Shown here: positions 20,856-39,961 of the stretch, one piece after another | Layout: every line of letters begins with the position of its first letter | How positions within the stretch are numbered: the first letter of the stretch is position 1 | Assembly: GCA_020444515.1 (NCBI GenBank) | Contig: JAHLKX010000004.1 | Location: forward strand, 62,001-126,000 | DNA: 64,000 nt | Direction: 5' to 3' | DNA from: Bacteroidota bacterium | GTDB lineage: Bacteria; Bacteroidota; Bacteroidia; Bacteroidales; JAADJA01 | Made by a program: the position numbers and the translations under genes | Notes under the pieces: generated by a model | Database searches by the model: none | What the model saw: only the letters and a program-made list of their open reading frames with translations | What the model was told of the DNA's origin: nothing

Positions 20856-21245
20856 ATGAAGGCAATATCGATTCTTGAACATCATCAGCTTTCCAGAACA
20901 GAGAGCCGGATGGAAATTCTTGAGCTTCTGTTAAACAAAAACGTGGCCCTTTCAGAAAAAGAGATCAAGGATGAGCTTTCAATAAAATGCGACAGGGCGA
21001 CCATTTATCGAACACTGAACACTTTTGTGAAATCAGGAATTGCGCATTCCATCATAAACAATGACGGACCCCTTAAATATGTCATAAAAAAAGCCCCGGA
21101 GGATCACGTTCATTTTAAATGTCAAGTGTGTGGACATATCATGTGTCTTCCACAAATTATCATTGATAAAATCGAGTTACCGGATGGTTTTACCCGTACA
21201 GAAAGTAATTTTTTAGTCATCGGAACCTGCAAAAACTGCAATTGA
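20856..21245 (+). CDS. zur: Fur-family metal regulator, probably zinc-responsive (Zur)
   Basis: 129 residues. An N-terminal winged helix (SRTESRMEILELLLNK ... KCDRATIYRTLNTFVKSGI) matches the Fur family DNA-recognition region. A dimerisation domain follows with HVHFKCQVCGHIMC and a terminal CKNCN, that is two CxxC pairs for structural zinc. Genes for a zinc-type ABC importer follow after 3 bp, so a zinc-uptake repressor is the best reading; manganese is the alternative. A palindromic operator lies directly upstream. The start leaves almost no room for a leader, so the mRNA may be nearly leaderless. uvrA ends 61 bp upstream. Confidence 0.87.
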   Translation: MKAISILEHHQLSRTESRMEILELLLNKNVALSEKEIKDELSIKCDRATIYRTLNTFVKSGIAHSIINNDGPLKYVIKKAPEDHVHFKCQVCGHIMCLPQIIIDKIELPDGFTRTESNFLVIGTCKNCN

Positions 21246-21248
21246 ACA

Positions 21249-22142
21249 ATGTTTACAAGTATAAAATTTAAAAAAGCGTTAAAAAGGACATTGCTGTTCA
21301 CTTTGCTGTTGTTCATTGTCGGGAGTTGCAAAAATAACGAACAGACATCCGAAAAGCCACTCATCACGGTCAGTATACTGCCACAAAAATTCTTTGTTGA
21401 AAAAATCGCAGGTGATCAGTTTGCAGTGGAAGTTATGATTCCACCCGGAGCCAGCCCTGCTAGCTATGAACCAACGCCTAATCAGATCATCAACCTGAAT
21501 GCATCAGATCTGTATTTGGAAATCGGTTATATCGCTTTTGAAATCAACTGGATCAATAAGCTTCAGGCAGAACATCCGGAGGTACAGTTCATCGACACTT
21601 CAAAAGGGGTAGTGTTAATGGAGAACAACAATGAAGATGGCCATGGACATGATCATGGGCCTGTAGAACCCCACATTTGGACCTCCCCGAAAAATGTCAG
21701 AATCATTGCCAGTAATATGGCCAGTGCTCTATCCAAAAAGGACCCAAGCCAACAGGAACTTTACCAAAAAAATCTCGAAAAATTCTTACTGGAAATCGAC
21801 TCTGCGGATAGGGTGATCCAGGAGCTCCTTCAGAAAATTGAAAACCGGAGTTTTATCATTTATCATCCAGCTTTGACTTATTTCGCAAGGGATTATAATT
21901 TGGTACAGATACCCCTGGAATTCGAAGGGAAAGAACCTTCAGTCAAATATATCCAACACGTGATTGATTTGGCAAAGGCTAACAATACCCGCGTTATTCT
22001 TGTCCAGGCGCAATTTAATCAGGACGAAGCCATTACACTTGAAAAAGAGATTAGCGGGAAGATCATCCCCATTGATCCCCTGGCTTATGATTGGACCAGG
22101 GAAATGATTCACATTGCCACCCAACTTTCTGAAAATCTTTAA
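21249..22142 (+). CDS. znuA: Zinc ABC transporter substrate-binding lipoprotein (ZnuA-like)
   Basis: 297 residues with lipobox IVGSC, so it is lipid-anchored and captures the metal in the periplasm. The cluster A-1 pattern is clear: ITVSILPQKFFVEKIAGD, PPGASPASYEPTPNQI and YLEIG. A short His/Asp-rich loop (DGHGHDHGPVEPHIW) is characteristic of zinc-specific members. Metal-ligand regions include EPHIW, FIIYHPALTYFA and the final IDPLAYDW. It begins 3 bp after the regulator gene and is followed by the ATPase and permease. Confidence 0.93.
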   Translation: MFTSIKFKKALKRTLLFTLLLFIVGSCKNNEQTSEKPLITVSILPQKFFVEKIAGDQFAVEVMIPPGASPASYEPTPNQIINLNASDLYLEIGYIAFEINWINKLQAEHPEVQFIDTSKGVVLMENNNEDGHGHDHGPVEPHIWTSPKNVRIIASNMASALSKKDPSQQELYQKNLEKFLLEIDSADRVIQELLQKIENRSFIIYHPALTYFARDYNLVQIPLEFEGKEPSVKYIQHVIDLAKANNTRVILVQAQFNQDEAITLEKEISGKIIPIDPLAYDWTREMIHIATQLSENL

Positions 22143-29106: not shown

Positions 29107-30558
29107 TTAATCTCGCCTTAACCTGATGGCCGCATGATGCTCAATAAAAGGGATTAACTGCTCTACCTTCAGGCGTTTAGCCAATATTTTTTTGTTTTCA
29201 TCGAGGAGAAATATTGTCGGTGTAACATTGATATCGTAAAGTCCATGATAATCAGGTGTTACACTCCGGGTCCCATTTACATGGACCCAATTCAGGTCCT
29301 GATCCCTAATATATTTTTTCCATTTGACCAGATTGGTATCGGTGCAAACAGCAAATACCTTGACGTTTAGGGTATCAGTTTCGTCCCATTTTTTTAGGGC
29401 CTTTATTTCCTTCCGACAATGGCTGCAATCCGATTCATAAAAAAAAACGATGAGGTACAGGGCATTTTGCTGGTATAGAGATTTAAAACCTCCGCTGGTA
29501 TCCAAAAGAATCATGTTGGGTGCGGGGGTTCCAATTAATATATTTCGAAGCGCATCGGCTCTTTGCTTTAAGGTTTTAATGGTGGATTCACTCGTCCAAA
29601 AAGCCTTTCCAGTGAGATAGTAACGATCAACCATGTGTACAAATATCTCATCAAAACCCATAATGTTGGAAGTCTCAAACTTGTAAGTAAGATACCAGAC
29701 AGTATATTTAAAAGTTTCTGGATTGGAGTCAAGTTTTGCCACAAATTTATCAATCTCCAGGATGATAGAATCGGGGTGCTGAAAAACAACTTTAGTAAAA
29801 AATGTTTCAAGTTTGCGATGGTATAAAGGTGTTCGCAACAAACGGGCATCGGCCGGATTAAATTGATCCCAGTAATGATTTTTATAATATTGATACATGA
29901 ACACAGAATCCTCTCTTTGATTGGAAGTCAAGGGAAAATCTGCAGGATCAGGATCATCCATCGCCCTGAGCAATACCGACACAAATGAACCATCTCCTTT
30001 AACGATGATCTGTTGTTTCACAGAATCCAATCGGATACGCATATCAGCAATGGTCTTATCGATTAGTTCTATGGAATCATTACCGGGATCCAATCTTTTC
30101 TTGTCCGCACTTTGCTGCTGTATCTCTTTCTGCAGGTTTACATTGAAGTTTATATACCTGTAAAACAGTTCATTCTCAATTGAATTTTTAAATTTAATAT
30201 CAGAAAACAAACCGGATAAATTGGATTGAACTTTAAACCGCTGACCCTGATCAATAATAAGTTCGAAGTACTTATTGTTGGTTTGACCTGCTAATATATA
30301 AATGCCTCCTGGCAGCAAAGTATCTGCTTCAAAAGTAAAGTTCCCCTTGTTATCCCTATAAGCAGTATCGGTGAGATAGGTTTTATCTCCATAATAATTT
30401 GCCAGGTAAAGTACAGAATCCGGAATATCTTTGATTTCGACTTCAATGTAAAAACCTTTGTCAGATTGTGCATAACCGCTAAATAGGGTCGCCTGAAATC
30501 CAACAACAAGCATCAGCCATGTCCATAAGCTCTTTTTCCCTGAATAATTTACTTTCAT
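29107..30558 (-). CDS. Exported TlpA-like thioredoxin-fold protein with DUF4369-type N-terminus
   Basis: 483 residues from the ATG at 30558; an upstream TTG would precede the signal peptide. Residues about 35-120 form a small beta domain like DUF4369 (YIEVEIKDIPDSVLYLANYYG, then GGIYILAGQ). A helical middle segment resembles DUF5106. The C-terminal thioredoxin fold carries C378-S-H-C381 (FYESDCSHCRKE) and the cis-Pro segment NVTPTIFLLD. It probably reduces or isomerises disulfides in the periplasm. It lies between the PKD protein and the GH16-like lipoprotein, all on the same strand but with gaps of about 90-120 bp. Confidence 0.88.
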   Translation of the reverse strand: MKVNYSGKKSLWTWLMLVVGFQATLFSGYAQSDKGFYIEVEIKDIPDSVLYLANYYGDKTYLTDTAYRDNKGNFTFEADTLLPGGIYILAGQTNNKYFELIIDQGQRFKVQSNLSGLFSDIKFKNSIENELFYRYINFNVNLQKEIQQQSADKKRLDPGNDSIELIDKTIADMRIRLDSVKQQIIVKGDGSFVSVLLRAMDDPDPADFPLTSNQREDSVFMYQYYKNHYWDQFNPADARLLRTPLYHRKLETFFTKVVFQHPDSIILEIDKFVAKLDSNPETFKYTVWYLTYKFETSNIMGFDEIFVHMVDRYYLTGKAFWTSESTIKTLKQRADALRNILIGTPAPNMILLDTSGGFKSLYQQNALYLIVFFYESDCSHCRKEIKALKKWDETDTLNVKVFAVCTDTNLVKWKKYIRDQDLNWVHVNGTRSVTPDYHGLYDINVTPTIFLLDENKKILAKRLKVEQLIPFIEHHAAIRLRRD

Positions 30559-30680
30559 AATACAGATGTGTAACAAAACTAAGCTGAATCAAAATACAAT
30601 GAAACACATCTTTAACGAAGCTATCAAACAGGAATTGTTGAAAACCCTCTTTGGAACCGGGAAAATAAAACGTCCTTAAA

Positions 30681-32909: not shown

Positions 32910-34703
32910 ATGATGAAAAATTTTTTTTTCGGTATTGTTGTGTTATTTCTCCAGATAACGGCTTTTGCACAAACTACTTTTTGGTCGGAGAATTTTAAAA
33001 CCGGAGAAGGTTGGAACCTGGAAGATAACTGGACTGTGACCGGAGAGAAACTACAATTTTACTGGTCGCCTGAGGCCAATAATTTTGATTTGCGTGCCAC
33101 TTCCTCACCGGTTTCATTAGACGAGCATGTTACAGAACTGGTCATTACGCAATACCTTGATATATTTTCAGGAACAAATGATGAATCGGCTCAGATAATT
33201 TTGGTTGCGTCCGATGAAGAGTTCGTTTTATGGGATTATCCGCTGATTAATGGCAACTGGGGATCATTTAGCGGTTCCGATCTGATTTTACCAATTCAGG
33301 AATACGCCGGTATGGATGTTCAAATACAATTTCGCACTTTTGGCTTGACCACCTTTAACTGGAACGAATGGGATATTTTTGAAATCAACCTGATGGCCAA
33401 TTATACATCCGATCTGGCTGCTGTAAATTTAAGTGGACCTGTTGCCCTGAATGTGCTTGAAACAGGCATCTGGACTGTTGATGTGAAAAATATGGGTTCG
33501 GATCCGGCGAACGGATATACCGTCAGCATTTTTGAAAACAAGTCCAACAACCTGATTGGAACCATCACTGAAACAGAAACCATTGAGCCAGGTGAAACCC
33601 GGTTCTATGATTTTGAATGGTCATCCAATGCTGCTTTCAATACTTCGTTCAAAGCCTGGATTGACTCACCGGATGATCAATTTTCAGGCAATAATAAGTC
33701 AAAATCTTCTTTTGTAAGGATCCATCCGGATGTGGAAATGAATATCCTGGTTTGGGATCACGACAATGGAATTCAAACGGTTCAGGATCCTGAAAAGGGA
33801 GACCTGATCACACCCTCCAAAGGAATGAAAAGGGTGTTGGATGATGCTGGAATTGACTATGATTTTTATACATATATACCCGATAACCTCGATACCTACG
33901 ATATTGTTTTTAGCACCATGGGGTGCTTCTGTGTCGATTGAGGCATGACTCCTCCTGGTTACGTAAATGCAACGGACCAGGACAAACTGATCAACTACCT
34001 CGAAAATGGAGGTAACCTGTATATCGAAAGTGTCAATATCGGGCTTGATTATGAAAATACAACGTTCTTTGATTATTTGGGAATAGAATTCCTCGATGAT
34101 GGTGATGAATATGAGGTAATGACCCTTAAAGGAGGTTGTTACAATTGCACGGAATCGCTGAAGTTCGACTATTTGGGCGATATCAGTCCCCATTACAGTT
34201 GTGATAAACTTGGTTCCAACGGTGCTGCACTTTTGCTGAACAGTGAAGATGGTAAAGGACGGATGTTTGTGAATGAACAAAGCAATTATAAAGTAATATC
34301 TTCCTCGGTGGTCATAGCCGCCATTGCAAATGATGACTCACTTAGTTTAAAACCCTATCTTTTCAGTGAGTTTGTGAACTACTTTATGGGATACAACCCG
34401 GTAACAGCCTTGCAGGAGAATATTTTTGAAAGGTTGGAGGGGTATAGTTTTCCAAATCCATTTGCCAACGAAACAACCATCAACTTTACAATAGGCCAGG
34501 CTAAAAAAGTTAAAATTGCAGTTTATACAATGAATGGGCAATTGATTAAAAACCTGGTCCATCGCAATTATAAACCCGGGGAATACAATGTGATCTGGGA
34601 TGCAACCGATTTATCAGGAAACAAGGTCGACAATGGTTGGTATCTGTGTAAAATAGTCTCCGGCAATCAGATACTCACAAAGAAAATGGTGGTAGTGCAT
34701 TAA
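32910..34703 (+). CDS. Candidate secreted selenoprotein with in-frame TGA (Sec344) and T9SS tail
   Basis: Two half-ORFs (ending at 33941 and restarting at 33945) are in the same frame and separated by a single TGA at 33939-33941. Read as selenocysteine, they give 597 residues. Layout: signal peptide 1-20 (ATG at 32910, with AGGA upstream); a beta-sandwich domain about 25-160; a CARDB-like Ig domain about 165-265; a Rossmann/class I glutamine-amidotransferase-like domain about 275-470 (MNILVWDHDNG, YDIVFSTMG, DQDKLINYLENGGNLYIES); and a type A sorting tail from about 505 (YSFPNPFANETT). The TGA falls in the loop after YDIVFSTMG, giving C339-F-C341-V-D-U344. Further Cys at C410-Y-N-C413 and C431 may pair with it. 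tRNA-Sec, selA, selB, yedF and selD follow directly. The alternative is a nonsense mutation, but both sides remain intact and in frame. Function is unknown; redox or metal binding is inferred. Confidence 0.8.
33939..33982 (+). promoter_or_regulatory. UGA selenocysteine codon with candidate bacterial SECIS hairpin
   Basis: After the TGA (33939-33941) and 11 nt, TCCTGGT (33953-33959) pairs perfectly with ACCAGGA (33976-33982). A U60-G75 wobble can extend the stem. A single bulged A (33961) follows, then CGT (33962-33964) pairs with ACG (33972-33974), closing the 7-nt loop AAATGCA. The loop begins 23 nt after the UGA, within the range known for bacterial SECIS elements, and a bulged base below a short upper stem resembles the E. 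coli fdhF element. The loop lacks a G in its first two positions, so it is not a textbook match. Confidence 0.6.
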
Positions 34704-34916: not shown

Positions 34917-36329
34917 ATGACAAAAAATCAGGAAACATTTAAACACATCCCGGGCGTTGACAAGCTCCTGAATACGCAAAAGATCAAGAATTTAATTAAA
35001 CAATATAATTCTGATCTGGTGAAGTTTGCCATTCGAGAAACCCTGAAAGGTATTCGAATGAATATTAAAAATTATAAAAATCCCCCTTCAGAAGATTTGA
35101 TTCTTTGCAAAATCAGCGACTTCGTTCGGGGATTAACCGGTAAAAACCTGAAACCGGTATACAATGCAACCGGAATTATTGTTCACACCAACCTGGGAAG
35201 GGCTCCTTTCAGCCAAAAGGTGCTGGATGAATCAATGGAAACCTTGCAGGGATATAACAACCTGGAATTTGATCTTGAAAGGGGTGAACGCGGATCACGT
35301 CATATCCATTTAACATCAAAGCTAAAATATCTTACCGGTGCCGAAGATGTACTGGTGGTGAACAATAATGCTGCAGCTGTCATGCTTGTATTGAGGACAT
35401 TTGCTAGAAACCGGGAGGTGGTGGTCTCCCGTGGTGAACTCATTGAAATTGGGGGTTCTTTCCGTTTGCCGGAGATCATGGAAGCTTCAGATTGCAAAAT
35501 GGTGGAAGTGGGTGCGACCAATAAAACTCATCTTAAGGATTATGAAAAGTCTGTTTCCAAAAATACAGCCATGTTATTCAAGGCTCATAAATCCAATTAC
35601 GTGATCCGTGGATTCACCGAAGAAGTGCCACTTTCCAGCCTGGTAGAGCTGGGTAAAAAGTATAAATTGCCGGTGGTCTACGATATGGGATCGGGTTTGT
35701 TGAGAAAAACAAATGTTACCGTTTTGAAAGGGGAACCCGATGTTCGTGAGACCCTGGCATTTGGGATGGATCTTGTCACTTTCAGTGGAGATAAGTTGAT
35801 CGGCGGTCCGCAGGCAGGTATCATCGCCGGAAAGGCAAAATACATTTCCATATTAAAAAAAGAACCCATGGTGAGGGCTTTACGGGTTGGTAAAACAACG
35901 CTGGCATATATGGAAGCAGCCCTCAGCCATTATCTTGATGACAGGCTGCTGGAGCAGCACAATACCATTTTCAGTACCTTGCAACAATCGAAGCAAATAA
36001 TACAAAGCAGAGCAAAAGCACTGCAGCAAGCTTTGAAATTATCAGATATTTCCTCAGAAATAGTTGAAAGCGATGGCTATTGCGGGGGGGGTGCCCTTCC
36101 TGATGAGGCGGTGCCAAGCATGGCTGTAAAATTAACGGGTAATTTTCATTCCAATAAAGAACGGGCAAACTGGATGGAAAAAATGTATTTTGCGCTGATG
36201 CAACAGCCCAAACCGGTGATTGGCATCCTGAAAAAAGGAGAACTTTACTTTGATGTGCTTACCCTCAATGACACATCTGTTGGTATCGTTGCTGAAATCA
36301 TTAACAAAACAAAACAGACCCTTGCATGA
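34917..36329 (+). CDS. selA: L-seryl-tRNA(Sec) selenium transferase
   Basis: 470 residues, full length. It is a PLP-dependent fold-type I enzyme that converts Ser-tRNA(Sec) to Sec-tRNA(Sec) using selenophosphate. Diagnostic segments are NATGIIVHTNLGRAPFS, the Arg-rich region DLERGERGSRHIHL, VVNNNAAAVML, and the PLP Lys K293 in TFSGDKLIGGPQAG. The N-terminal helical domain (about 1-70) that binds tRNA-Sec is present. The ATG lies 32 bp after the tRNA gene. The stop overlaps the selB start (ATGA), so the two are translationally coupled. Confidence 0.97.
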   Translation: MTKNQETFKHIPGVDKLLNTQKIKNLIKQYNSDLVKFAIRETLKGIRMNIKNYKNPPSEDLILCKISDFVRGLTGKNLKPVYNATGIIVHTNLGRAPFSQKVLDESMETLQGYNNLEFDLERGERGSRHIHLTSKLKYLTGAEDVLVVNNNAAAVMLVLRTFARNREVVVSRGELIEIGGSFRLPEIMEASDCKMVEVGATNKTHLKDYEKSVSKNTAMLFKAHKSNYVIRGFTEEVPLSSLVELGKKYKLPVVYDMGSGLLRKTNVTVLKGEPDVRETLAFGMDLVTFSGDKLIGGPQAGIIAGKAKYISILKKEPMVRALRVGKTTLAYMEAALSHYLDDRLLEQHNTIFSTLQQSKQIIQSRAKALQQALKLSDISSEIVESDGYCGGGALPDEAVPSMAVKLTGNFHSNKERANWMEKMYFALMQQPKPVIGILKKGELYFDVLTLNDTSVGIVAEIINKTKQTLA

Positions 36330-38290
36330 AGCACCTGATCATTGGCACGGCAGGTCATGTTGACCATGGAAAAACAGCCCTTATAAAAGCGCTGACCAAT
36401 TTTGATTGCGATACCCATAAAGAAGAGAAAGAAAGAGGAATAACCATCAATCTCGGATTTACCCATCTCGATCTTCCTTCTGGAGAATCGGTAGGCATTG
36501 TAGATGTCCCCGGACATAAAGACTTTATCAAGACCATGGTAGCCGGGGCTTATGGGATCGATATCGTTTTACTGGTTGTGGCAGCCGACAGCGGTATTAT
36601 GCCACAAACCCGGGAGCACCTTCAAATTATCGAAATGCTTGGAGTACAAAAGGGCATCGTTGTACTCAACAAAGCCGACCTCGTGGATGAGGAAATGCTT
36701 GAACTGGCCGAACTTGAAGTTGTTGAATTCCTGGAAGATACCAGCCTGAAGAATGCACCCATAATACCTGTTTCTTCACACACAGGTTCAGGTATTGAAA
36801 AACTGGTAAATGAAATCGAAAAGCTCATTCCTGATATCCATGAAAAAGAACCAACAGATCGCTTCAGAATGTATATCGATCGGATCTTCAATGTCAAGGG
36901 GATCGGATTTGTGGTGACCGGATCAGTACTTGAAGGACAGATCAGTCAGGGCGGTGAGCTTTACCTCCTCCCGGGAAAGGCCAAAAAAATTAAGATCAGA
37001 AATATTGAACGACATGGAGAAACAACCGACAAAGTTTTTGTGGGTGACCGTGCTGCATTGAACCTTGCAGGTCTCAAATTCGAGGACTATTCAAGGGGTA
37101 TGGTATTGTGCAATAAACCACTTGAGGAAACAGAAATGGTTGATGCCACCTGTACCCTATTTGATGAGACCACTGTTTTAAAGATCTGGTCCAATGTGAT
37201 TTTTTATACGGGTACTTTTGAATGTTCGGCTCGCATGCACTTACTCAACAAAGATGAACTGATAACGGGTGAAACCGCCATCGTACAAATCCATCTCTCC
37301 AGGCCAGCCGTGTTGGTTAATAAAGACCGGTTTATTATCCGCAATACATCCAATGATCTGACCTATGGAGGAGGAACCATCATCGATTCAAAACCGCTTC
37401 ATCATAAAAGACGAACGGAAAAGGTGATTACCGAATTGACCGAGTTGGTCGATGCTACATTGAACAGCGACAAACTGATCAACCTCATCAAAATAGAATT
37501 AAGCAAATCAAATGTACCGGTTTATGCCAGCGTTATCGCTGAAATGATACATAAATCACTGGAAGAGATCATCTTTGAATGTGAAGAAAATAAAAACAAG
37601 GATGTCAGTGTTTTCAGAAGCAAAGAAAAAGTGATCTTATTGCGATCTGAAAGGGACCGGTATTATCATGATCAGGTACTGGAAGAAATCGGTCAGTATC
37701 ATCTGAAAAACCCCATCCTGGATAATGGGCTGGAAACCATTGATTTCTATGGAAAATTCGGATTTGGCAACAATGAAGCCGGAAAGTTATACCTCGAGTT
37801 ACTGATGGAGCGGATCCGGCAAGAGGGTATGATCAAAAAAGTTGAGAACTCGTGGGCATTGATGAACCATCAGGTTAAGATCGATTCCAAGACCCAGTCA
37901 CAACTTGAATGGATTGAAAAAATGATCAGAGCAGTGGGAATGGAAAAACCCATGCCATCAGATATAGAGGAAATGGCACACTCAGAACGGATCAACAAGG
38001 AGCGACTGAAAATGATGATCAAATACCTGGGGAAGCAAGGCAAACTGGTTTTTCACGACGGCGATTATATTCATCGTGCAATTGTGGATCAATGCCGCAA
38101 ACAATTATTGGAAAAGATAGCCAACAAAGAGGACGGCATCAACGAAAAGGAATTCAGGGAGATGATCAATGGTACTAAAAAGCTGGTGCAAATGCTGCTT
38201 GGTATATTTATAGAAGAAGGTACCGTTAGCAAACCGACTTTTTACATCCTGATCACGGATAAAGGAAAGCAATGGTTAAAGAATAATTAA
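36326..38290 (+). CDS. selB: Selenocysteine-specific elongation factor SelB
   Basis: 654 residues. An EF-Tu-like GTPase with G1 GTAGHVDHGKTALI (8-21), ERGITINLGF (switch I), DVPGHKDF and NKADLVD. Two beta-barrel domains follow (IDRIFNVKGIGFVVTGSVLEG marks the SelB/EF-Tu domain II junction). The C-terminal 300 residues are winged-helix repeats that bind the SECIS hairpin (for example MEKPMPSDIEEMAHSER, then KMMIKYLGKQGKLVF). It brings Sec-tRNA(Sec) to the ribosome at UGA codons with a nearby hairpin. The start ATG overlaps the selA stop. Presence of this gene is what makes the in-frame UGA upstream meaningful. Confidence 0.97.
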   Translation: MKHLIIGTAGHVDHGKTALIKALTNFDCDTHKEEKERGITINLGFTHLDLPSGESVGIVDVPGHKDFIKTMVAGAYGIDIVLLVVAADSGIMPQTREHLQIIEMLGVQKGIVVLNKADLVDEEMLELAELEVVEFLEDTSLKNAPIIPVSSHTGSGIEKLVNEIEKLIPDIHEKEPTDRFRMYIDRIFNVKGIGFVVTGSVLEGQISQGGELYLLPGKAKKIKIRNIERHGETTDKVFVGDRAALNLAGLKFEDYSRGMVLCNKPLEETEMVDATCTLFDETTVLKIWSNVIFYTGTFECSARMHLLNKDELITGETAIVQIHLSRPAVLVNKDRFIIRNTSNDLTYGGGTIIDSKPLHHKRRTEKVITELTELVDATLNSDKLINLIKIELSKSNVPVYASVIAEMIHKSLEEIIFECEENKNKDVSVFRSKEKVILLRSERDRYYHDQVLEEIGQYHLKNPILDNGLETIDFYGKFGFGNNEAGKLYLELLMERIRQEGMIKKVENSWALMNHQVKIDSKTQSQLEWIEKMIRAVGMEKPMPSDIEEMAHSERINKERLKMMIKYLGKQGKLVFHDGDYIHRAIVDQCRKQLLEKIANKEDGINEKEFREMINGTKKLVQMLLGIFIEEGTVSKPTFYILITDKGKQWLKNN

Positions 38291-38313: not shown

Positions 38314-38925
38314 ATGAAAACGATAGACGTAAAAGGGATGAAATGCCCGATGCCACTTATAGAGACTAAAAAGGCGCTCAAAGAGATCGGAAAAGAAGAG
38401 TCGCTCCGGATCATTATTGATAATGAAACTTCGGTAAAGAATGTGACCCATTATTTAGAAGATAACAACCTGCCAGTGGAGAAGAAACAGGATGGTAAAA
38501 TTTTTGAACTGATCGTCAATAAAACAGGTGATGAAAGCTACGAAACATGCAATGCAGAAGCTTACTGTGAGGTTCCTGCAGAAAAGGATAAAAGTTTCGT
38601 GGTGATGCTCGCCAAAGATTACCTTGGAGAAGGTGAACATGAGCTGGGCCACGCCCTGGTGGGATCCATGCTCAATACCATCAAAGCAATGGAAGTCCTT
38701 CCTGAAAAAATCATTTTTATGAATTCAGGGATTAACCTGGTAACGAAAGGATCCCTTTTCCTTCCCCTGTTGAAAGAACTTGAAACGATGGGGGTAACCA
38801 TCATTACATGTGGGACCTGTCTGGATTATTATGGTAAAATGGATGATTTGGAGATAGGCCGAATTTCAAATATGGCCGATATCATGGAAAGTATGCTAAC
38901 TGTAGGAAAAGTAATAAATATTTAA
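38314..38925 (+). CDS. yedF: Selenium metabolism protein YedF (TusA-like plus DsrE-like)
   Basis: 203 residues. Residues 1-70 are a TusA-type domain with the Cys-Pro motif KGMKCPMPLIETKKAL. Residues about 95-203 are a DsrE/F-like domain (FVVMLAKDYLGEGEHELG, then VTIITCGTCLDYYG). The two-domain form next to selD is the selenium-associated YedF family. Its proposed role is carrying selenium or sulfur to SelD, though the biochemical function is not settled. It lies 23 bp after selB and 1 bp before selD. Confidence 0.92.
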   Translation: MKTIDVKGMKCPMPLIETKKALKEIGKEESLRIIIDNETSVKNVTHYLEDNNLPVEKKQDGKIFELIVNKTGDESYETCNAEAYCEVPAEKDKSFVVMLAKDYLGEGEHELGHALVGSMLNTIKAMEVLPEKIIFMNSGINLVTKGSLFLPLLKELETMGVTIITCGTCLDYYGKMDDLEIGRISNMADIMESMLTVGKVINI

Positions 38926-38926
38926 A

Positions 38927-39961
38927 ATGGAAATGGATCTATTGAGTCTGGTCGAACAAGGGGGATGCTCTGCTAAACTTTCTGCAGCGGAACTGAATGA
39001 AGCATTGGCTGAACTGCCCAAAATCACCCACGACAATATCCTTGTAGATATCGAGACCCATGATGATGCTGGTGTATATAAGATTCGCAATGATTACGCC
39101 CTCATTCAGACCACGGATTTTTTTCCACCCGTCTGTTCCGATGCTTATGATTACGGACAAATTGCTGCGGCGAATGCCCTCAGCGATGTCTATGCCATGG
39201 GCGGTCAGGTACTAACAGCTCTGAATATTGTGTTGTTTCCTGCCCATCTCCCCCTCACCATTTTAAAGGAAATAATGCGGGGCGGTCAGGACAAAGTGCA
39301 GGAAGCCGGTGGTTTTATTCTTGGGGGGCATACCATTGCCAACGACATCCCCATTTATGGTCTGAGCGTTACGGGTTGGGTACACCCTGACCAGGTGACA
39401 ACCAATGACCAGGCTGAACCGGGAGATTTGTTGATCCTGACGAAACCCATCGGTACCGGAATTATTATTTCAGCCAGGAAGAATGATCTGGTTTCAGTGA
39501 ATGCCTATGAAGCAGCATTGGATAACATGAAACATCTCAATGACAAAGGAGCCAGCGTATTAAATCAATACGGTATTAAGTCTGCCACCGATATCACCGG
39601 ATTTGGTCTGCTGGGTCATGCCATGAAGATGGCTGATGGCAGTAAGGTTTCCATTCGGATTGATTCACAAAAAGTTCCCACGCTTCCTTCCGTTATGGAA
39701 TTGATTGAACTGGGATGTATTCCGGGAGCTGCATTCAGGAATAAAGAATTTACAGAAGGACACTGTCATTTTGAACAAAACATTGATTATAACTATAAAA
39801 TGTTGGTATTGGATGCGCAAACCTCAGGCGGCCTGTTGATGGCTGTGAAGCCTGATAAAGCAGATGACGCTATAAATGCGTTAATAGAATCCGGATATCC
39901 CGTTTCAACCATAGTGGGTGAAGTGATAAAGCGCAACAATCAGTCGGTTTATGTTTATTAA
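38927..39961 (+). CDS. selD: Selenophosphate synthetase (selenide, water dikinase)
   Basis: 344 residues. SelD makes selenophosphate from selenide and ATP. The flexible N-terminal active-site segment is EQGGCSAKLS, with C14 and K17 in the place of the catalytic Cys17 and Lys20 of E. coli; so this is the Cys form, not a selenoprotein. ATP and metal-binding segments include QTTDFFPPVCSDAYDYGQIAAANALSDVYAMGG and ATDITGFGLLGHAMKMA. It is the last gene of the sel cluster and convergent, with 7 bp, with a PCMD gene. Confidence 0.97.
   Translation: MEMDLLSLVEQGGCSAKLSAAELNEALAELPKITHDNILVDIETHDDAGVYKIRNDYALIQTTDFFPPVCSDAYDYGQIAAANALSDVYAMGGQVLTALNIVLFPAHLPLTILKEIMRGGQDKVQEAGGFILGGHTIANDIPIYGLSVTGWVHPDQVTTNDQAEPGDLLILTKPIGTGIIISARKNDLVSVNAYEAALDNMKHLNDKGASVLNQYGIKSATDITGFGLLGHAMKMADGSKVSIRIDSQKVPTLPSVMELIELGCIPGAAFRNKEFTEGHCHFEQNIDYNYKMLVLDAQTSGGLLMAVKPDKADDAINALIESGYPVSTIVGEVIKRNNQSVYVY

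What the first reader, a model, noticed from the sequence alone, without database searches (positions are those of the whole stretch)
32910..34703. A T9SS-exported selenoprotein of unrecognised family encoded beside its own Sec machinery
Two ORFs that look like separate genes are in the same frame and separated by a single TGA. The upstream half has a signal peptide and no C-terminal tail; the downstream half has a tail and no start signal. Joined, they give one complete secreted protein. The TGA lies in a C-x-C-x-x-U motif in the loop after a Rossmann strand. tRNA-Sec, selA, selB, yedF and selD follow within 90-300 bp. A selenoprotein sent through the Sec and type IX pathways and displayed at the surface would be unusual, and I know no described family with this domain layout.
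Basis: partly seen in the sequence, partly recalled or inferred. Interest (0 to 1): 0.93.

Follow-up and report, generated by a model that had tools for sequence, protein, structure and literature searches.

The report
Exported selenoprotein family without cysteine version
A gene in a Bacteroidales-related bacterium contains a UGA codon at the same place in every family member examined, beside the genes that make selenocysteine, so it likely encodes a new kind of selenium protein that is predicted to be exported to the cell surface, where it would work in redox chemistry.

Summary
A TGA (33939-33941) splits one 597-residue frame: signal peptide, beta-sandwich, CARDB-like domain, GATase1-like domain with C-x-x-U, T9SS sorting tail. 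The TGA is at the same residue in 33 of 33 family copies aligned, down to about 33% identity. A hairpin follows it, clear in most copies. Of 393 genomes of the order, 13 hold the family and 43 hold selA; all 13 are among the 43. No cysteine form was found: 35 of 35 short database relatives stop exactly at the TGA. One correction: only CxxU is invariant; the earlier Cys is in 23 of 33. Sec decoding is near certain; export is well supported; the redox role is inferred. The family is not in the 2026 catalogue of 119 prokaryotic selenoprotein families and matches no NCBIfam selenoprotein model. The same genome has two further thioredoxin-like UxxC candidates with T9SS tails (one tail by eye), and relatives have a beta-propeller one with CU. 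In the three genus genomes lacking both selA and this gene, the best thioredoxin-like relative has Cys instead, and so does the propeller relative found in one of them. Likely an exported selenium redox system.

The parts
32910..34703 (+). Selenoprotein gene, 597 aa with TGA read as Sec, TAA stop
   Evidence: 12 full-length same-genus relatives plus one cut by its contig end
32910..32972 (+). Predicted signal peptide (residues 1-21, AFA-Q)
   Evidence: sequence; Q21 invariant and T22 nearly invariant in A3, 22 rows; no dedicated predictor run
32973..33404 (+). N-terminal beta-sandwich domain (residues 22-165, approximate)
   Evidence: strands with 10-residue block pLDDT mostly 75-92 in model m63000f14f636
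33408..33671 (+). CARDB-like domain (residues 167-254)
   Evidence: PF07705 E 0.0012-0.0027, 18.3-19.5 bits, below the curated cut-off of 22.7
33729..34403 (+). GATase1/ThuA-like domain (residues 274-498)
33930..33941 (+). C341-x-x-U344 motif; TGA at 33939-33941
   Evidence: 33 of 33 copies
33955..33980 (+). SECIS-like hairpin with one bulged base and 7-nt loop
   Evidence: 30 rows: 87.0% of cells paired, covariation score reached by 0 of 500 shuffles (three distant copies left out); synonymous-codon control z -3.9 in the window
34449..34694 (+). T9SS type A C-terminal sorting domain (residues 514-595)
   Evidence: PF18962 and TIGR04183
34792..34884 (+). tRNA-Sec (anticodon TCA)
34917..36329 (+). 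selA, L-seryl-tRNA(Sec) selenium transferase; its own stop is TGA
   Evidence: TIGR00474 E 6.6e-158; stop
36326..38290 (+). selB, Sec-specific elongation factor
   Evidence: TIGR00475 E 1.7e-94
38314..38925 (+). yedF, selenium metabolism protein
   Evidence: TIGR03527 E 1.6e-58
38927..39961 (+). selD, selenide water dikinase, Cys form (GGCSAK)
   Evidence: TIGR00476 E 3.2e-111; sequence; that this Cys is the catalytic one is recalled

Best explanation
The TGA at 33939-33941 is likely read as selenocysteine by the tRNA-Sec/SelA/SelB encoded next to it, giving one 597-residue protein that is predicted to leave the cell through Sec and T9SS and whose CxxU loop would act as a thiol/selenol redox site outside the cell. 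Steps and my odds. (1) UGA = Sec through a SECIS-like hairpin just 3' of it: about 0.97, shown by comparative genomics, not by chemistry. (2) Export by signal peptide and T9SS tail: about 0.85, from domain matches and a T9SS gene in the genome. (3) C341 and U344 would form a selenenylsulfide in the cleft loop of a GATase1-like domain that lacks the amidase nucleophile motif: about 0.65, inferred. (4) Partners would be the other T9SS-tailed selenoprotein candidates (thioredoxin-like UxxC; beta-propeller CU): about 0.4, inferred from the shared export tail and, in some relatives, shared gene neighbourhood. The N-terminal beta-sandwich and CARDB-like domains would serve binding or spacing. Because the tail is translated only after the UGA, sorting by T9SS would depend on selenium.
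For: Same TGA in 13 of 16 same-genus genomes, that is in all 13 that hold the gene, and in 33 of 33 copies overall. In 393 genomes of the order, 17 of 17 strong hits (273 bits or more) have exactly one TGA; the next best hit scores 97 bits. Family present in 13 of 393 genomes, all 13 among the 43 with selA and none among the 350 without; Fisher p 5e-14, genomes not independent (that both calls drew the same 393 is inferred from equal settings and handles). In the genus, selA over cut-off in 13 of 17 genomes, on the same contig as the gene in all 13; no selA over cut-off in G003, G006 and G013, which lack the gene, nor in G007, whose gene contig ends inside the gene. tRNA-Sec downstream in 12 of 13 same-genus loci; the 13th contig ends inside the gene. 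Second half without stops in 13 of 13, and dN/dS downstream 0.06-0.26 in 7 pairs, four of them near saturation at synonymous sites. Hairpin. The gene's real stop is TGA in 4 same-genus relatives and in 3 of 11 further copies, so TGA is not simply reassigned. Natural control: the best match to a T9SS thioredoxin-like protein has TGA at UxxC in 10 selA-positive genomes and Cys in the three genomes lacking both selA and the gene (G003, G006, G013), where none of the 11 matches contains a stop.
Against: No Cys homologue at the site, which is the usual support for a new selenoprotein. The hairpin beats synonymous-codon variants at p below 0.05 in only 11 of 25 copies, and three show nothing (L053 second copy z 0.05, L058 z 0.41, L059 z -0.14). 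RNAalifold over all 25 gave only -0.97 kcal/mol, I think because the bulge position varies. In one search some control measures are ordinary (further pair types reached by 95 of 500 shuffles). The published bSECIS model wants a G in the first two loop positions; the predicted 7-nt loop does not start so, although an almost invariant G-U forms the top of the stem. No tRNA-Sec on the fetched stretches of L050 and L055-L059 nor of 5 of the 12 family loci (about 3.7 kb each); Sec machinery of the Cloacimonadota and Zixiibacteriota genomes was not tested. Nothing experimental. CARDB is below its cut-off. The full-length model is poor in much of the Sec domain. 30 of 43 selA-positive genomes of the order lack the family, so it is not what keeps Sec there. 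In the thioredoxin-like control three selA-positive genomes have Cys and G007 had no site.
Confidence: 0.82

Rival explanations
1. The UGA is a true stop and two genes, or a broken gene, lie side by side.
For: Gene calling in public data ends the protein there: 35 of 35 database relatives under 360 aa stop at this codon.
Against: The downstream half has no signal peptide, stays in frame and under purifying selection; CxxU is invariant in 33 of 33; the codons after the TGA form one predicted domain with those before it; in the order sample the family occurs only where selA is.
Confidence: 0.02
2. Both products matter: without selenium a 343-residue secreted protein without tail is released, with selenium the full protein is sorted by T9SS, so the UGA is a selenium-controlled sorting switch.
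For: The UGA lies between the hydrophobic start and the tail in the 24 copies aligned (start and tail judged by eye in most), and the N-terminal domains before residue 270 are complete in the model.
Against: The stop would fall inside the GATase1-like domain, after its third strand, leaving an incomplete fold; selection for the short form was not tested.
Confidence: 0.2
3. The exported CxxU site binds a soft metal or metalloid (Hg, As, Cd, Cu) instead of cycling electrons.
For: Soft-metal binding by CxxU is chemically plausible (general knowledge); the 2026 catalogue lists selenoproteins of mercury and other metal systems (PMC13188914 Table 1).
Against: The genome's other exported selenoprotein candidates are thioredoxin-like, which points to thiol redox. 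Neighbouring genes other than sel genes were mostly not annotated, so a link to metal resistance was not tested.
Confidence: 0.25
4. UGA is reassigned to an ordinary amino acid in this lineage.
For: A TGA is read through in frame.
Against: The terminal stop of the same gene is TGA in four same-genus relatives and selA ends in TGA; one TGA per gene, always at the same site; a true tRNA-Sec is present.
Confidence: 0.01

Closest known systems
CTP synthase C-terminal region-related (glutamine amidotransferase) selenoprotein, NF004836 (deep-Sep, PMC12013277; listed in PMC13188914 Table 1)
   Same: A selenoprotein named for a GATase-type domain
   Different: There the listed motif is GxUxG, which I read as the amidase nucleophile position; here U is in CxxU in the loop after the third strand, the domain has no GxCxG, the protein is predicted to be exported, and no Cys form was found. 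NCBIfam did not report that model for our protein.
CxxU redox selenoproteins (SelW-like, GrdA, AhpD-like; PMC13188914 Table 1)
   Same: CxxU motif, presumed thiol/selenol chemistry
   Different: No match to their families at the thresholds used; different predicted fold; T9SS tail
Non-Sec GATase1-like domain of mostly large secreted-type proteins of the order and phylum (L002, L006, L008, L065-L086, L159-L170)
   Same: Same domain by profile, 22-28% identity
   Different: Typically a shorter loop (LGxYSxN) without CxxU and about six residues; no Cys or TGA at the aligned site in the non-family rows printed, several of which have a gap there
T9SS type A cargo proteins
   Same: Signal peptide (by eye) and Por_Secre_tail (TIGR04183)
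   Different: My searches of the held library listed no T9SS cargo described as a selenoprotein (one listed paper, PMC13055991, holds both a T9SS-type term and a selenium term once each and was not read)
Multi-selenoprotein operons (SAO, Tso; section 9 of PMC13188914)
   Same: Several selenoproteins encoded together, which suggests a common pathway
   Different: Here the products carry T9SS tails and, in some relatives, lie with tRNA-Sec, selA, selB, yedF and selD

Membership tests
Bacterial selenoprotein | In-frame UGA conserved, with conserved flanks and coding sequence on both sides | tested here: met
   33 of 33 copies; dN/dS
Bacterial selenoprotein | SECIS hairpin directly 3' of the UGA | tested here: met
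   30 copies without the three most distant ones: 87.0% of cells paired; all 25: 78.2%; mean z -1.74 against -0.11 for control windows, rows not independent. The G-at-loop-start rule of the published model is not met as folded, and three copies show no signal.
Bacterial selenoprotein | Sec machinery in the same genome | tested here: met
   window; 13 of 13 family genomes of the order sample have selA
Bacterial selenoprotein | Cys-containing homologues (usual, not strictly required) | tested here: not met
   none; one search scored only the 7994 candidates sharing most words, and one search scored at most 7 candidates per genome
Bacterial selenoprotein | Selenium present in the protein | not testable with these tools
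   needs 75Se or mass spectrometry
T9SS type A cargo | C-terminal sorting domain | tested here: met
   TIGR04183 41.5 bits, cut-off 23
T9SS type A cargo | N-terminal signal peptide | tested here: inconclusive
   clear by eye and conserved; no predictor available
T9SS type A cargo | T9SS machinery in the genome | tested here: met
   SprA_N PF14349 E 2.4e-163; other components not searched
Class I glutamine amidotransferase-like fold | Fold | tested here: met
Class I glutamine amidotransferase-like fold | Nucleophile Cys motif GxCxG of an active amidase | tested here: not met
   no such motif in alignments A2 and A5; the position after strand 4 is E-S or E-G in the Sec rows; the motif itself is recalled
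Selenoprotein families in NCBIfam 20.0 | Match to a curated selenoprotein model | tested here: not met
   only the sorting tail, two T9SS-dependent protease models and FlgD for P0001 at E up to 0.001
The 119 families/subfamilies of the 2026 catalogue (PMC13188914 Table 1) | Domain and Sec motif as listed | tested here: not met
   table read; no entry with a GATase1-like CxxU domain or T9SS tail; compared by domain name, motif and NCBIfam scan, not by sequence for every entry

The most novel reading that the evidence does not exclude
An extracellular selenium redox system: Bacteroidales-type bacteria encode a Sec-decoding cassette whose clients are several T9SS-exported selenoproteins (CxxU GATase-like, UxxC thioredoxin-like, CU beta-propeller), relaying electrons outside the cell; the CxxU family is bound to selenium, with no cysteine version, and its UGA makes T9SS sorting itself depend on selenium.
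Probability: 0.4. Interest if true: 0.92.

Novelty: new variant of a known kind. Interest (0 to 1): 0.84.

Why it matters
Present search methods lean on Cys homologues; the deep-Sep authors say their method may not identify selenoproteins that lack them (PMC12013277, passages). This family showed no Cys form in any search here, and the 35 short database entries seen for it are all cut at the UGA, so both the family and its T9SS tail escape annotation. Selenocysteine displayed outside a Gram-negative cell would add a cell-surface role to bacterial selenium biology and give a testable case of a protein that evolution does not appear to replace with cysteine.

Tried and rejected
Hypothesis that this gene is the sole Sec client of its genome: rejected; two T9SS thioredoxin-like genes with TGA exist. 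Sec formate dehydrogenase: none of 4 PF00384 hits contains a stop in the matched part. Full-length fold search: the 50 rows shown are glycosidases and relatives at query TM 0.16-0.24 and 11.6-27.1 A rmsd, not informative, replaced by the domain model. PDB by sequence profile: four chance hits with E 1.8-2, no relative. RNAalifold consensus over 25 rows was weak; explicit pair counts used instead; between them I moved the bulge by one column and left out the three most distant copies, which favours the later figure. Two-gene, pseudogene and reassigned-code readings rejected (see rivals). The weaker TGA-joined pairs in the window at 21243 and 53380 are ordinary. The survey of other Sec families in the genome was limited to PF00384, PF00578 and homologues of the exported ones; it is not a full selenoproteome. 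Papers: PMC13188914, sections 5 and 9 and parts 1-2 of section 7 read (part 3 not read), and its abstract; PMC12013277 and PMC12016528, passages only; all other papers seen only in search listings. That it is not in print rests on searches of an open-licence library without preprints, judged from titles and abstract starts.

Full report
Observation. The frame, the TGA, the domain matches and the neighbouring tRNA-Sec, selA, selB, yedF and selD are as described. Within the window no other TGA joins open stretches of 200 or more codons on both sides. The gene lies at G000:C11:94910-96700 in a 5.0-Mb, 16-contig assembly.

Relatives in the genus. Of 16 same-genus genomes, 13 hold a relative at 49-58% identity, each with exactly one TGA, at the same residue. 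In 12 of these 13 loci tRNA-Sec lies directly downstream; the thirteenth contig (L021) ends inside the gene. selA over its cut-off is in 13 of 17 genus genomes, on the same contig as the gene each time. G003, G006 and G013 lack both gene and selA; G007 has the truncated gene and no selA over cut-off. In the tRNA-Sec scan, which covered G000-G011 of the genus, genomes with the family score 57-65 bits except G007; G003 and G006 reach 45-47 bits, a level that second matches in G005 and G009 also reach. The second half is open in 13 of 13, and dN/dS after the TGA is 0.06-0.26 in seven pairs, against 0.08-0.21 before it in the six pairs where it could be computed; four pairs are near saturation at synonymous sites.

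Relatives beyond. A scan of GTDB contigs gave 26 loci: 22 (L038-L059) carry the TGA-bearing family, 13 of them the same contigs as the same-genus loci; L060-L063 match only the non-Sec domain or the tail. New copies come from records titled Bacteroidales or Bacteroidetes (L050, L052-L056), Cloacimonadota (L057, L059) and Zixiibacteriota (L058). Two records have two tandem copies, each with its TGA (L053, L054). In 395 genomes sampled from the phylum, 16 have a match at E 1e-6 or better and only the window's own has the Sec form. In 393 sampled from the order 13 have it, with 17 copies at 273 bits or more, every one with one TGA; the next hit is at 97 bits, and hits from there down were listed without stops, mostly in long frames (list cut; at most 7 candidates scored per genome). 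selA is in 43 of 393; the overlap is 13 of 13. Thirty selA genomes lack the family. tRNA-Sec is near the gene in L052-L054 but not on the fetched stretches of L050 and L055-L059, and in 7 of the 12 family loci.

Tally at the site. Window, 13 same-genus, 11 and 8 new ones make 33 distinct copies aligned (of the 12 family rows, L147, L148 and L150 repeat earlier loci, and L149 was taken as the same as L056). U344 is TGA and C341 is Cys in all 33; residue 339 is Cys in 23 (by eye). Four further copies (second copies in G672, G737, G565, G506) were reported with one TGA but not aligned by me; one may repeat L055.

No cysteine form. Two searches of 5.8 billion proteins gave 35 relatives under 360 aa, including the window's own; all 35 end with C-[VL]-[DS] just before the TGA. 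Of the 82 hits, 33 are of this kind; the other 49 are 383 aa or longer and are covered at 9-42% of the query, mostly the tail. I fetched four of those 49 (P0038, P0040, P0041, P0044), and P0014; the rest were judged from the table. One search scored only the 7994 candidates sharing most words. The non-Sec versions of the domain typically have a loop shorter by about six residues and neither Cys.

Hairpin. In 30 copies (the Cloacimonadota and Zixiibacteriota ones left out) a nine-pair stem with one bulged base starts 13 nt after the TGA: 87.0% of cells paired against 19.5-51.3% when slid by 1-3 columns, covariation score 0.203 against 0.148 shuffled (0 of 500), pairs changed on both sides 3 (15 of 500), further pair types 8 (95 of 500). 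With all 25 copies of the first set, and the bulge one column on, 78.2%. With codons replaced by synonymous ones, the window's -16.1 kcal/mol compares with a mean of -7.2 (z -3.9); over 25 copies the mean z is -1.74 against -0.11 at control windows; 11 of 25 have p below 0.05; rows are related, so the Mann-Whitney p of 1e-10 is too small. Three copies show no signal. The published bSECIS limits (3-9 nt loop, 4-16 bp upper stem, 16-37 nt spacing, -7.5 kcal/mol) are met in the window; the rule of G in the first two loop positions is not, as folded, though an almost invariant G-U forms the top of the stem.

The company it keeps. The same genome has two more genes with hydrophobic start, TGA in a thioredoxin-like UxxC motif and T9SS tail: L091 (UGTC; domains and tail by Pfam) and L171 (USFC; tail by eye). 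For the first, the best match has TGA at the site in 10 genus genomes with selA, Cys in three with selA (G004, G010, G015), Cys in the three without selA and gene (G003, G006, G013), and G007 showed no site. In L040, L043, L047 and L049 a beta-propeller protein with LC-U-GSAE lies upstream in the same direction (propeller repeats and T9SS tail by Pfam for the L047 protein); its relative in selA-free G006 (38% identity) reads LCCGSPE. L040 carries a UxxC thioredoxin-like protein after selD, and L043 a similar one 5.7 kb after the Sec gene, with PKD and T9SS tail by Pfam. So TGA/Cys exchange goes with the Sec machinery in two exported families, while the CxxU family was found only with TGA.

Interpretation. 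The best reading is an exported selenoprotein of a new family, likely with thiol/selenol chemistry. Sec decoding is shown as far as genomes can show it; export is predicted; chemistry and partners are inferred. Literature: the 2026 catalogue does not list it, and no title or abstract start in nine library searches describes it.

Noticed in passing
G000:C14:58346-59206 (L091 847-1707, - strand): Second exported selenoprotein candidate of the same genome: hydrophobic start, AhpC-TSA/thioredoxin domain with U-G-T-C, T9SS tail. In the genus, Cys replaces Sec in the three genomes lacking selA and the main gene.
   Followed up: partly
G000:C14:234249-235544 (L171 750-2045, - strand): Third candidate: thioredoxin-like U-S-F-C protein with a T9SS-like tail by eye; similar proteins lie after selD in L040 and downstream of the Sec gene in L043.
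   Followed up: partly
L047:3300-4934, L043:21-1664, L040:1-1647, L049:1021-2661: Beta-propeller (DUF5122/SBBP) protein with T9SS tail and an LC-U-GSAE motif upstream of the Sec gene; Cys at the site (LCCGSPE) in a selA-free genome (L127). No selenoprotein model matched the L047 protein.
   Followed up: partly
L053:354-4086 and L054:8072-11803: Tandem pairs of the Sec family, each copy with its own TGA, before tRNA-Sec.
   Followed up: no
L040:1644-2798: Omp28-like T9SS-tailed protein with a C-V-S-C motif between the propeller selenoprotein and the CxxU selenoprotein.
   Followed up: no
window 20856-22142: A zur-like regulator and a znuA-like gene (names by eye) in the same frame with a single TGA between them: an ordinary gene boundary that mimics a selenoprotein.
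   Followed up: yes
window 29107-30576, - strand: ResA/thioredoxin-like protein with a Cys-type C-S-H-C motif, one gene away from the Sec gene on the other strand.
   Followed up: no
L043 and L047 record titles: Two MAGs titled Chlorobiota bacterium share contig lengths with genomes of the window's own genus; the titles look outdated.
   Followed up: no
L058 residues 620-680 of the 908-aa Sec protein: Weak match to NF041425, OS_HP2 family (seleno)protein, 20.6 bits against a cut-off of 100, away from the UGA.
   Followed up: no
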